From NCBI GenBank assembly GCA_007922195.1, contig ML682003.1:5013383-5077382 (forward strand): a DNA stretch of 64,000 nt, given 5' to 3'. Each line of letters starts with the position of its first letter. The stretch's first letter is position 1. Positions 30,056 to 51,760 of the stretch are shown here, piece by piece. The notes beneath the pieces were generated by a model that worked only from the letters and a program-made list of their open reading frames with translations, was not told the origin of the DNA and did no database searches. The stretch is from Podocnemis expansa (taxonomy: Eukaryota > Chordata > Testudines > Podocnemididae). Made by a program: the position numbers and the translations under genes.

Positions 30056-30140
30056 ATGGAAGTTCTCTGGAGTCTTTTGCTGACAATTGGGATCCTTGCA
30101 GGGACAGGGATGTCTCAGGACTGCACCCCACCACCAGAAG
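30056..30140 (+). CDS. Lectin exon 1: signal peptide and linker
   Basis: ATG at 30056 opens MEVLWSLLLTIGILAGTG, a hydrophobic signal, then MSQDCTPPPE and a phase-1 donor G|gtaaga. Its linker (QDCTPPPE) and the start of its intron resemble the 3' edges of exons 3 and 5, so it shares ancestry with the domain-joining boundary. The GTG-initiated extension upstream is not credible for a vertebrate gene. Confidence 0.8.
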
Positions 30141-51100: not shown

Positions 51101-51760
51101 CGCACCAACCCCTGGGACACTGCTTGATGCTGGTTGTTAATCAGCCATTAAGCCATTGATCAGTACCTGTTGGACTTGATGATCTGGCCAGCTTTCTAGC
51201 CACTGGAGGAGACTGTACCTAAACTGTTGGTAAAGCCAGAGTATATCACACCCACTGCTTCCCCCACAGCCACAGAGCCAGTCATCTCATCACAGAAGAT
51301 AATCAGTTCTGTCAGGCATGACTGGCCCTTGGTGAATCTGAGCTGATTGCTTTATCATCTTTTTGCCTTCTTGGCTTCTGCTTGTCTTAGCTGTGGGACC
51401 ATCACCGATATCAGAGCTGGATCCGTCAGTACCACCTGCTGTAATGGCTGCTACCTCACCATTGTCATTCCAGGCAGGAGAGAGCATCTGATGCTGCCCC
51501 AAGGGGAGCCTGCTTGCTTGGAGAGAAGGTGCCCCCTGGCCAGGAACTGCCATATCCAGGGAGTGCTGGTGACTGTCTTCACTGGCACTCCTGGCACAGG
51601 GGAACCTCTGGGGCTGCCCTGTCTGGGGAGCGATGGGCAAGGGAGCGCTAGGGGCTCTTCCCTCAGAGCCCCAGTTGCTACCTTCTCTCGGGGAACCATG
51701 ACTCCCTTCTTGCTGGGGTCCTGGGGAGAAGGGAACCACAGCTTTCTCAGTTCAAGTTAG
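30056..51760 (+). CDS. Secreted F-type lectin with three tandem fucose-binding modules
   Basis: F-type lectins (fucolectins) are secreted beta-jellyroll proteins that bind L-fucose and act in innate recognition in fish, amphibians and sauropsids. Exons: 30056-30140, 30593-30875, 34446-34606, 35396-35678, 41383-41543, 42324-42606, 51391-51760. All have AG/GT borders and compatible phases (1626 nt, 541 codons plus stop). Residues 1-28 hold a signal peptide (MEVLWSLLLTIGILAGTG). Each module has a first half ending NPI/NPM and a second half CGTITDI...LTLCEVEV. The ligand triad H-x26-R-x-D-x4-R is present in all three. Modules are joined by a short Q-x-C-x-P-x-P linker. The last exon diverges before the final strand, so module 3 may not fold normally. 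A shorter product ending elsewhere is possible. Confidence 0.85.
30593..30875 (+). CDS. Lectin exon 2: module 1, first half
   Basis: 283 nt, ttccag| to AT|gtgagt. It encodes QNMALWRPATQSSTFSSY, AVDGKRNGNF, SCTHTNNDREPWWTVDLG and VIVKNREDCCGERLWGA. The His of CTHT and the NREDCCGER arginines form the expected fucose-binding triad, and the Cys-Cys pair typical of the family is present. Confidence 0.9.
31475..31928. mobile_element. hAT-like insertion in lectin unit 1 only
   Basis: Candidate ends CAGGGGCAGCCTTAG and (minus strand) CATAGGTGGTCTTAG. The paralogous positions in units 2 (near 37245) and 3 (near 43205) lack it. The interior is C-rich tandem sequence. Confidence 0.5.
31940..32265 (-). 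mobile_element. CR1 3' end fragment, antisense
   Basis: The reverse complement carries the CR1 C-terminal/3'-UTR wording (ggaatgggttgcc-like and gaatctcaatgctt). Equivalent copies are at 39290-39545 and 48430-48680 in units 2 and 3. Confidence 0.6.
32807..33201. mobile_element. MITE M5 (TTTCGAAA-type core), 3-bp TSD TAT
   Basis: Left GGCTATGTCTACAC, right GTGTAGACATACCC, duplication tat at 32804-32806 and 33202-33204. Unit 3 has the unoccupied site (gaacaatatggctcc at 50204-50218). The interior is almost wholly TTTCGAAATAA words in both orientations. Confidence 0.9.
33685..34405 (-). mobile_element. CR1 RT C-terminal fragment, antisense (unit 1)
   Basis: The minus strand encodes GRIQSDLNELKDWAKRNLLR, LNKAKCRVLHLGQENPR and SLSAKTANVIMGSVNRSMAS, then upstream RT. 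Orthologous insertions stand in the same place in units 2 and 3, so it predates the duplications. Confidence 0.8.
34446..34606 (+). CDS. Lectin exon 3: module 1, second half
   Basis: 161 nt, cttag| to G|gtaagg. It encodes CGTITNIGAGAISTTCC, NGMQGRYITIVIPGRAEYL, TLCEVEVMAQ and the CAPLPG linker. The CEVEV strand that closes the fold is intact. The acceptor lies about 40 bp after an antisense CR1 fragment. Confidence 0.9.
34607..35395. other. Lectin intron 3
   Basis: Homologous to intron 1 (30141-30592) and intron 5 (41544-42323), starting gtaaggagctgacacagcttgaatgg. It carries a hAT element absent from intron 1. Confidence 0.7.
34688..35019. mobile_element. hAT element in lectin intron 3
   Basis: Left end CAGGGGTCTATAACCT; the right end on the minus strand resembles CAGGTCAGCAGCCC (as preserved in the copy at 41623-41949). 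Flanks gcccagtg (34680-34687) and gcctagtg (35020-35027) differ at one base. Confidence 0.7.
35396..35678 (+). CDS. Lectin exon 4: module 2, first half
   Basis: 283 nt, ttccag| to AT|gtgagt. It encodes AQNLALGRPATQSSTKY, AVDGQRNGILEQRSCSHTE, PWWSVDLGTEHSIS and NREDCCGERLKGAQIRVG. Ligand triad intact; closer to exon 6 than to exon 2. Confidence 0.9.
35705..35882. mobile_element. hAT (CAGTGGTTCTCAACC ends), lectin unit 2 only
   Basis: Terminal repeats CAGTGGTTCTCAACC and its inverse; flanks ctctggag and gtctgaag (6 of 8). Absent at the matching positions near 30900 and 42625. Confidence 0.75.
36259..37071. mobile_element. MITE M6 (AAGTCGACTT-type core), 3-bp TSD ATA
   Basis: Left GGCTATGTCTACAC, right GTGTAGACATAGCC, duplication ata at 36256-36258 and 37072-37074. 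Unit 3 keeps the unoccupied site (catagacacatatagatg near 43017). The subterminal AAGTCGACTT arrays flank a GC-rich centre (36380-36895) without a credible gene. Confidence 0.9.
37822..38900 (-). mobile_element. CR1 3' half fragment, antisense (unit 2)
   Basis: The reverse strand encodes QPSVLVAKKTNGILGCVS and related C-terminal RT sequence, then the 3' end marked by aatcatagaagaatag at 37825. Frames are broken. Confidence 0.75.
39040..39545 (-). mobile_element. CR1 3' end fragment with a nested hAT, antisense
   Basis: CR1 3' end sequence (tagaagagtaggtttgg...gggatttcatccaatc, then tctaaccctctgctcaaag) is split by the hAT at 39094-39282. Confidence 0.65.
39094..39282. mobile_element. hAT (CAGTGTTTTTCGAA / CAGAGATTTTTGAGA ends)
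   Basis: Flanks atccaatc and atctaatc match 7 of 8. Inserted in an antisense CR1 3' end. Confidence 0.75.
40430..41340 (-). mobile_element. CR1 RT fragment, antisense (unit 2)
   Basis: Counterpart of 33685-34405 and 50690-51360. It carries an additional hAT-like segment at about 40960-41135 (tttcaaagttaaggtcagg ... aaaaaagtttgaaaacc). Confidence 0.75.
41383..41543 (+). CDS. Lectin exon 5: module 2, second half
   Basis: 161 nt, cttag| to A|gtaagg. It encodes CGTITDIIAGSVSTICC, NGLRGRYVTIVIPDRMEYL, TLCEVEVMAQG and CAPLPG. Same length and phase as exon 3. Confidence 0.9.
41544..42323. other. Lectin intron 5
   Basis: Homologous to intron 3 including the shared hAT at 41623-41949; a G-run occurs near 41715. 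Confidence 0.65.
41623..41949. mobile_element. hAT element in lectin intron 5 (same insertion as in intron 3)
   Basis: Flanks gcccagtg (41615-41622) and gcctagtg (41950-41957) are the same 8-mers, at the same place, as in intron 3, so one insertion was copied by the segmental duplication. Confidence 0.75.
42324..42606 (+). CDS. Lectin exon 6: module 3, first half
   Basis: 283 nt, ttccag| to AT|gtgagt. It encodes AQNLALGCPATQSSTYK, AVDGQRNGILEQGSCSHTE, SWWSVDLGTEHS and NREDCCEERLKGA. The triad is kept; a Cys replaces Arg in LGRPATQSS. Confidence 0.9.
43390..44160. repeat. Shared lectin-unit intron repeat and antisense CR1 3' end
   Basis: 43390-43770 matches 37430-37820 (ggaataaccttcc, gagttactacagagaattctttcc). 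43770-44160 is an antisense CR1 3' end with a Penelope-tail piece at 43905-43990 (gaagtgggattttttcccacaaaagctcatgc, split: gaagtgggatttt, cacaaaagctcatgc). Confidence 0.55.
44164..44349. mobile_element. hAT (CAGTGGTTGTCAAAC ends)
   Basis: Terminal repeats CAGTGGTTGTCAAACT and CAGTAGTTGTCAAGCT; flanks gcctagct and acctagct match 7 of 8. Confidence 0.8.
44381..44657. mobile_element. 'gggttaccagatgtc' DNA transposon remnant
   Basis: Inverted ends gggttaccagatgtc and ggtatctggtgactc (reverse) enclose about 275 bp with internal inverted aggacatgtcctcc. Same family as 14171-14300. Confidence 0.5.
44660..45040 (-). mobile_element. CR1 fragment, antisense
   Basis: The minus strand gives LDKLEDWAKRNQMRF and CRILH from the CR1 RT C-terminal region; truncated near 45040. 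Confidence 0.6.
45041..45928. other. Unique G- then C-rich sequence
   Basis: A G-rich half (45050-45560) is followed by a C-rich half (45600-45920) with repeated ccaccc/tgcc words. The open frames follow from the composition; no gene is claimed. Confidence 0.35.
45929..46130. mobile_element. hAT (CAGCATTTCCCAACC / CACTGGTTCTCAACC ends)
   Basis: Inverted ends of the CAGTG-TTCTCAACC type with ggtgtgccatga repeated near both ends. No clear 8-bp duplication seen. Confidence 0.55.
46160..46348. repeat. Head-to-head inverted Penelope tails
   Basis: aaggagtcgtgtggcactttaagactaagatttatt (words gtgtggcactttaagacta) and its inverse tagtcttaaagtgccacac lie about 90 bp apart, each with gcatgagcttt/aaagctcatgc. 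The structure is a near-perfect hairpin. Confidence 0.7.
46735..46907 (-). mobile_element. CR1 3' end and repeat fragment, antisense
   Basis: aatcatggaaaagtaggattgg marks the CR1 3' end; it is interrupted by the LTR at 46908. The flank resumes near 48381 (gtcatagccataaatgatt). Confidence 0.5.
46908..48375 (-). mobile_element. LTR copy, minus orientation, with nested hAT
   Basis: The reverse complement matches 48684-49663 over its whole length: same TATA-like gataaaaggcag, Gly-free R region, and terminal GGTCACA. A 481-bp hAT (47544-48024) sits inside. No internal retroviral genes. Confidence 0.7.
47544..48024. mobile_element. hAT inside the minus-strand LTR
   Basis: Ends CAGGGTTTAAAGTAA and CAGGGGTTAAAATATAAA; flanks tttttttg and gttttttg (7 of 8). 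The second LTR copy lacks it, giving an unoccupied comparison. Confidence 0.75.
48400..48683 (-). mobile_element. CR1 3' end fragment between the two LTRs, antisense
   Basis: tgatctagtccagccctctgctcaaag (words ccctctgctcaaag) through ctgaaatctgagacctttgctc, equal to the unit 1 and 2 copies. Confidence 0.6.
48684..49663 (+). mobile_element. LTR copy, plus orientation
   Basis: Begins TGTGATGC, ends GGTCACA; flanks gcctg (48679-48683) and gcatg (49664-49668) differ at one base, and the host sequence gttgcctggtttcc (as at 32268) is restored by removal. TATA-like gataaaagg at 49058, caataaag at 49475. Confidence 0.75.
49664..50689. other. Lectin unit 3 intron sequence
   Basis: Parallel to 32270-33680 and 39545-40430; contains the unoccupied site of MITE M5. 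No exon seen. Confidence 0.55.
50690..51360 (-). mobile_element. CR1 RT fragment, antisense (unit 3)
   Basis: The minus strand encodes RDRMQSDLNELKDWDKRSL and CVLVAKKANSILDSINRS; third copy of the ancestral insertion next to a second-half lectin exon. Confidence 0.75.
51391..51760 (+). CDS. Lectin exon 7: divergent module 3 second half and novel tail
   Basis: The exon starts like exons 3 and 5 (CGTITDIRAGSVSTTCCNG), lacks four residues (MQGR position), keeps YLTIVIPGRREHLML, then departs before LCEVEV. The frame stays open for about 80 more residues with five Cys, unlike any lectin sequence I know. The TAG at 51758 lies in an AGTTCAAGTTAG word at the edge of a MITE-like region. Either a lineage-specific C-terminus or decay of the last exon. 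Confidence 0.6.

What the first reader, a model, noticed from the sequence alone, without database searches (positions are those of the whole stretch)
30056..51760. Three-module F-type lectin gene in a sauropsid-like genome
Seven exons join in one frame (1626 nt). They encode a signal peptide and three tandem F-type lectin modules, each built from a 283-nt and a second-half exon. The family is known from fish, amphibians and some sauropsids but missing in mammals. A three-module secreted form would be multivalent for fucose.
Basis: partly seen in the sequence, partly recalled or inferred. Interest (0 to 1): 0.8.

Follow-up and report, generated by a model that had tools for sequence, protein, structure and literature searches.

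The report
Turtle fucose-lectin gene, five modules
The window holds the first part of a turtle gene for a probably secreted sugar-binding protein whose best-supported reading has five fucose-binding modules rather than three; the family is already known, and the new points are the corrected gene model and its place in a three-gene cluster.

Summary
The seven segments exist, have GT/AG borders and join in one frame (1626 nt, 541 aa). They are F-type lectin (Pfam; PDB 3cqo, E 2.9e-78). The three-module gene model does not hold. The last "exon" (51391-51760) is a broken internal half-module exon: it matches its sister exons only to 51496, has lost the last strand (CEVEV), a conserved Arg and its donor, and has no AATAAA for 2.19 kb. 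In the host's own assembly intact exons follow beyond the window; exon 6 joins them in frame, ending at C42:5104351: 767 aa, five complete modules, AATAAA 106 nt after the stop. It is one of three neighbouring lectin genes (one, three, five modules), the only strong matches found in the assembly, lying between an MFSD3-like gene and an alanine-aminotransferase gene. Turtle and bird relatives with three to six modules are already in databases. A review reports the family in reptiles, birds, monotremes and opossum, so "missing in mammals" is wrong. New member of a known kind. No transcript was tested; a 7.5-kb N run could hide exons.

The parts
30056..30140 (+). exon 1: signal-peptide-like start (MEVLWSLLLTIGILAGTGMSQDCTPPPE). 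An AG ends 7 bases before the ATG, so a 5' noncoding exon upstream is possible
   Evidence: like exons begin two neighbouring genes and similar starts are seen in turtle proteins
30593..30875 (+). exon 2: first half (H1) of module 1, phase 1 to 2; HX26RXDX4R present
34446..34606 (+). exon 3: second half (H2) of module 1, phase 2 to 1; carries CEVEV and the linker
35396..35678 (+). exon 4: H1 of module 2
41383..41543 (+). exon 5: H2 of module 2
42324..42606 (+). exon 6: H1 of module 3; joins in frame to the intact H2 at C42:5090279 (window coordinate 76897, outside the window)
51391..51496 (+). relic of an internal H2 exon (homologous part of 'exon 7'): internal-type acceptor, 9-nt deletion, Arg of GRY changed to Cys
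51497..51760 (+). tail of 'exon 7': unrelated sequence open to a stop; no last strand, no donor at the sister exons' place, no AATAAA or ATTAAA within 2.19 kb after the stop
169..309 (-). exon of an alanine-aminotransferase-like gene
   Evidence: PDB 3ihj E 1.1e-10; bird model P0026. Pfam scan of this 47-aa piece gave nothing
887..1561 (-). open frame holding another exon of the same aminotransferase-like gene (match is residues 49-131 of the frame)
   Evidence: PDB 3ihj E 1.9e-22
2434..2550 (-). another exon of the same aminotransferase-like gene
   Evidence: bird model P0039. Pfam scan of this 39-aa piece gave nothing

Best explanation
The window holds the 5' part (signal peptide, modules 1 and 2, first half of module 3) of a secreted tandem-repeat F-type lectin gene of a turtle. 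The gene runs on the plus strand from window 30056 to about window coordinate 90969 (C42:5043438-5104351, 61 kb) and encodes at least five complete fucose-binding modules, 767 aa in the simplest join. Each module is made of an H1 exon (phase 1 to 2) and an H2 exon (phase 2 to 1), so only alternating H1-H2 joins stay in frame (shown by sequence). The segment called exon 7 is an internal H2 exon broken at 51496, most simply skipped so that exon 6 joins the next intact H2 (inferred). The protein would be secreted and cross-link fucosylated glycans, on microbes or on the animal's own glycoproteins, with several binding sites per chain (inferred from the family). It is the third of three neighbouring lectin genes, with one, three and five modules, that grew by tandem duplication (inferred from the repeated exon-intron units).
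For: Own-assembly search: 14 PF22633 matches, 10 of them strong (E 8.7e-17 to 1.5e-13), all 10 on C42 within 165 kb. tblastn on 264 kb of that contig: 3 signal-peptide, 10 H1 and 10 H2 exons, all plus strand. All 10 H1 and all 10 H2 have an AG acceptor; the 10 H1 and 6 H2 have a GT donor at the expected place, 3 H2 end in a stop, and exon 7 has neither there. The joined gene C reads 767 aa without an inner stop and Pfam finds five PF22633 stretches. The basic-triad motif is in all 5 modules. The terminal H2 exons of all three genes share a TTTGCAG acceptor, a VYxxxQGDK end and AATAAA at 105, 106 and 106 nt after the stop; exon 7 has the internal-type CTTAG acceptor and its first AATAAA at 2192 nt. 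Seven bird relatives of 765-772 aa (P0008-P0014) also have five modules.
Against: No transcript was seen, and a 34.3-kb intron is needed between exon 6 and the next H2. A 7521-base N run at C42:5081497-5089017 lies in that intron and could hide an H1 or more, so the splice path and the exact module number are unproved. Ka/Ks for the H2 pairs 3/5, 3/7 and 5/7 is below 1 but not significant. Module 5 reads VDV where the cation motif has VDG.
Confidence: 0.82

Rival explanations
1. Exon 7 is a real alternative last exon: the gene also makes a short 541-aa form with two complete modules and a third that lacks its last strand and carries a new tail. (Not exclusive of the long form.)
For: The frame stays open for 264 nt past the break and the acceptor is intact. 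The one gap in the homologous part is in frame.
Against: The residues equivalent to Cys146, Glu147, Glu149 and Arg131 are lost; the review names these as cation ligands, a disulfide or salt bridges of the eel lectin. In relatives, among modules that reach the last strand, Cys146 is kept in 487 of 488 and Glu147 in 481 of 488 (that set was chosen for reaching the strand). First AATAAA 2192 nt after its stop, against 105-106 nt in the three terminal exons.
Confidence: 0.12
2. The N run hides another H1, so there is a further module, and exons 6 and 7 together may be a dead module that is skipped (exon 5 to a later H1 is also in frame).
For: The order H2 (exon 7), then H2 (5090279) lacks an H1 between, and a 7521-base N run lies just before the second. 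Joining exon 5 to H1 5090891 is in frame too (619 aa).
Against: Exon 6 itself is intact, with motif and splice sites, and has Ka/Ks 0.24 against exon 4.
Confidence: 0.25
3. The window's gene is a pseudogene as a whole.
For: One broken exon; the H2 pairs tested show no significant constraint.
Against: The other splice sites, the frame and the binding motif are intact over the joined exons; exon pairs 2/4, 2/6, 4/6 and 3/5 carry no indels where the matching intron carries 15 in 772 nt.
Confidence: 0.06

Closest known systems
Turtle proteins annotated 'uncharacterized' (Macrochelys P0001, Mauremys P0002, Carettochelys P0003/P0022, Chrysemys P0007/P0023)
   Same: Same module and Cys-containing linkers (such as CAPPPG), similar signal-peptide start in most, 3 to 6 modules
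   Different: 65-70% identical over the aligned part (Trachemys P0017 62%). In a tree without fish the window's three modules form their own clade (98/92; weaker, 89/55, with more taxa)
Bird five-module F-type lectins (P0008-P0014, for example Columba P0009, Ciconia P0010)
   Same: Five modules and 765-772 aa, like the 767-aa model here
   Different: 55-60% identical. Bird modules 2, 3 and 5 group by position across the birds sampled, which turtle modules largely do not
MsaFBP32, striped bass two-domain F-type lectin (PDB 3cqo)
   Same: Tandem modules align end to end (E 2.9e-78); the review says the exons of its domains are split by introns at a Glu-Cys turn
   Different: Two modules rather than five
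Eel agglutinin AAA (PDB 1k12)
   Same: Single-module prototype, E 4e-30; basic triad and clamp residues named in the review
   Different: One module

Membership tests
F-type lectin | Profile match to the F-type/F5-F8C module | tested here: met
   PF22633 in 3 stretches of the 541-aa model and 5 of the 767-aa model, above the curated cut-off
F-type lectin | Fucose motif H...RXDX4(R/K) (His52, Arg79, Arg86 in AAA) | tested here: met
   HX26RXDX4R in window modules 1-3 and in modules 1-5 of the long model. The review prints HX24 but numbers the residues 52, 79, 86, which is X26. The neighbouring one-module gene lacks the His
F-type lectin | Cation site h2DGx, with Cys146/Glu147 in the last strand | tested here: met
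   Met in modules 1-4 of the long model (VDG and LCEVEV); module 5 has LCEVEV but VDV in place of VDG. Not met by the 'exon 7' form of module 3, whose last strand is lost
F-type lectin | Intron in the middle of the module at a Glu-Cys turn, as in MsaFBP32 | tested here: met
   The H1/H2 border falls in the codon before the Cys of CGTIT. The review prints Glu123-Cys124 for AAA; by my count of the 1k12 chain the Glu-Cys pair is 107-108, so the equality of position is my reading
F-type lectin | Binds fucose | not testable with these tools
   needs protein
Secreted protein | Signal peptide and no membrane anchor | tested here: inconclusive
   Hydrophobic start by eye; no predictor was run. The long model ends shortly after the last strand

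The most novel reading that the evidence does not exclude
The strict phase alternation (H1 1 to 2, H2 2 to 1), with surplus half-exons left in the array (two H1 in a row in gene B; exon 7 in gene C), lets these turtle genes make alternative forms by swapping or ending at half-modules. Gene B could choose either of two H1 exons in frame (each gives 471 aa; using both shifts the frame and stops at 428 aa), changing the half that carries the sugar site; gene C could end early at exon 7.
Probability: 0.1. Interest if true: 0.55.

Novelty: new member of a known kind. Interest (0 to 1): 0.36.

Why it matters
It corrects a plausible but wrong gene model and shows why: a decoy half-exon near the window's end. 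It gives exon structure, in one assembly, for what looks like the whole F-type lectin set of a turtle (three genes, 1, 3 and 5 modules; lower bounds). It places that set between an MFSD3-like gene and an alanine-aminotransferase gene. Automatic gene models in other species fuse the same neighbours (Natator lectin with a major-facilitator part, Apteryx and Haliaeetus lectin with aminotransferase). If GPT and MFSD3 are neighbours in placental mammals, as I recall, the place where placental mammals lost the family could be examined directly.

Tried and rejected
Homology of the exon-7 tail (51497-51620) to the ends of exons 3 and 5: rejected; the best local score is reached by 117 and 200 of 1000 shuffles. 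Tail as a dispersed repeat: its first 407 bases have no second copy in the 264-kb region at E 1e-3, later parts do; the genome-wide search of the tail did not complete, so this is open. Missing H2 between the two H1 of gene B and missing H1 after exon 7: blastn outside the known exons gave nothing better than E 7e-4, and that best one is the end of gene A's signal-peptide exon. MAFFT put a Cys of the tail in the Cys146 column for module 3 and gaps at the G-R columns; I follow the DNA alignment, where identity stops before that Cys and the Arg codon reads Cys. A first tree with coelacanth put window module 1 beside the fish on a long branch; I rebuilt without fish. With ten module rows of this genome (nine modules and one alternative) the tree does not unite them (2 changes). 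A side-necked turtle as host is suggested by 73% identity of module 2 to Pelusios P0133 and a shared DIRAGSVST stretch, but the trees do not group them or leave it open, so I do not claim it. Strand of the lectin/aminotransferase pair differs from the bird fused models, so linkage, not order, is claimed. Four weak PF22633 matches on other contigs (E 2e-4 to 8e-4) were not followed. Pfam scan of eight window pieces matched only two, both reverse transcriptase. Structure prediction was not run, because a spliced protein is not read letter for letter from the DNA.

Literature (listings only unless said): F-type lectin + turtle 1 paper, on mussels by title; fucolectin + turtle 3, on eel, oyster and fish by title; F-type lectin + marsupial only the review; pentraxin fusion protein + birds none. 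Looser searches listed 20 of 16,172, 20 of 1,955 and 8 of 109 papers; the review was the one on vertebrate F-type lectins that I used. Of PMC5712786 I saw passages found by term and section 8, not the whole text; the survey by Bishnoi et al. is known to me only through it.
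Full report
What is there. The seven segments of the finding are real: AG and GT borders, 1626 nt in one frame, 541 aa. Three stretches match PF22633 and PF00754, and the protein aligns to the striped bass two-domain F-type lectin 3cqo (E 2.9e-78) and to eel agglutinin 1k12 (E 4e-30). The sugar-binding motif HX26RXDX4R is present three times.

Selection. Between copies the introns show many indels: 15 gaps in 772 aligned nt (14 out of frame) for the exon 3-4 against the exon 5-6 intron, and 5 in 363, 14 in 407 and 5 in 389 for three other intron comparisons. The exon pairs 2/4, 2/6, 4/6 and 3/5 show none, and 3/7 one in-frame gap. Ka/Ks is 0.24 for exons 4/6 (Fisher p 3e-4), 0.48 and 0.52 for 2/4 and 2/6 (p 0.02 each), and 0.76, 0.68 and 0.42 for 3/5, 3/7 and 5/7, which are not significant. 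The pairs are not independent.

Segment 7 is broken. Self-comparison shows identity to exons 3 and 5 ending at 51496. The DNA alignment shows a 9-nt deletion, the Arg of GRY changed to Cys and, after the break, no CEVEV and no donor at the sister exons' place. The review (passages) names Cys146 and Glu147 as cation ligands, Cys50-Cys146 as a disulfide, and Arg41-Glu149 and Asp64-Arg131 as salt bridges of the eel lectin; the equivalents lost here are Cys146, Glu147, Glu149 and Arg131. The 120 homologues listed (of 1348 found) hold 548 module matches; 500 cover the module start and 488 of these reach the end. Among the 488, Cys is kept at position 146 in 487, Glu at 147 in 481, Glu at 149 in 418 and Arg at 131 in 395. 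The 488 were chosen for reaching the end, so these rates are biased upward; 12 of 500 do not reach it.

The gene goes on. The window is C42:5013383-5077382 of a 2.39-Gb assembly. PF22633 gives 14 matches there: ten strong ones, all plus strand on C42 between 4.94 and 5.10 Mb, and four weak ones on other contigs that I did not follow. I fetched 20 stretches around the window and found 3 signal-peptide exons, 10 first-half (H1) and 10 second-half (H2) exons. All have AG acceptors where one is expected; the 10 H1 and 6 H2 have GT donors, 3 H2 end in a stop, and segment 7 has neither at that place. They make gene A (one module), gene B (three modules, with two H1 in a row before the last H2) and gene C, the window's gene. 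Joining exon 6 to the next H2 outside the window gives 767 aa and no inner stop, with five PF22633 stretches. The terminal H2 exons of A, B and C share acceptor, ending and an AATAAA 105, 106 and 106 nt after the stop; segment 7 has the internal-type acceptor and its first AATAAA at 2192 nt. This is why I read it as a broken internal exon and not as the end.

Phase rule. H1 exons run phase 1 to 2 and H2 exons 2 to 1, so only alternating joins keep the frame. Exon 6 to H2 5090279 gives 767 aa; leaving out exons 6 and 7 gives 619 aa; exon 6 to the next H1 breaks the frame (stop after 473 aa). A 7521-base N run before H2 5090279 could hide an H1.

Neighbours. An MFSD3-like gene (88% identical over 229 aa and 90% over 51 aa to the first part of Natator model P0140) lies at C42:4909088-4910192. 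An aminotransferase-like gene lies on the minus strand at 5134722-5139398, and a second copy on the minus strand at 5010277-5015932, partly in the window (window pieces match PDB alanine aminotransferase 2). The name MFSD3 and the human gene order are recalled; the calls show a major-facilitator family match for P0140 (PF13000, PF07690).

Relatives and novelty. Turtle, bird, lizard, amphibian, fish and Tasmanian devil proteins with several modules are in the databases, mostly unnamed. The review reports the family in reptiles, birds, monotremes and opossum. In the trees without fish the window's modules sit with turtles. Bird modules 2, 3 and 5 group by position, while turtle modules group largely by lineage. 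The gene is therefore a new member of a known kind; what is added is the gene model, the cluster and its place.

What is inferred. Secretion, fucose binding, cross-linking and any immune or egg-coat role are inferred from the family; none was tested. That exon 7 is skipped is inferred from its damage and from the intact exons beyond. The odds given are not exclusive: the short form can exist beside the long one, and hidden exons would raise the module number.

Noticed in passing
C42:4975592 and 4997636 (upstream of the window; gene B): Two intact first-half exons in a row with no second half found between; only one can be used at a time in frame.
   Followed up: partly
C42:4939447-4939729 (gene A): The one-module lectin gene lacks the His of the binding triad (SVT where others have SHT), so the motif is not found there.
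   Followed up: no
window 1-3000, minus strand: An alanine-aminotransferase-like gene lies inside the lectin cluster, besides another copy at C42:5134722-5139398.
   Followed up: partly
window 8387-8848 and 25751-26503: Reverse-transcriptase fragments of retroelements (PF00078); retroelement-like stretches are also shared by the duplicated lectin introns.
   Followed up: no
window 51757-51783: Palindrome with 12-base arms (TTAGAGAGTCTA-ATG-TAGACTCTCTAA) at the stop of segment 7, seen by eye; may mark the end of an insertion.
   Followed up: no
window 6090-6544 and 7108-7562: 455-base inverted repeat, 96% identical.
   Followed up: no
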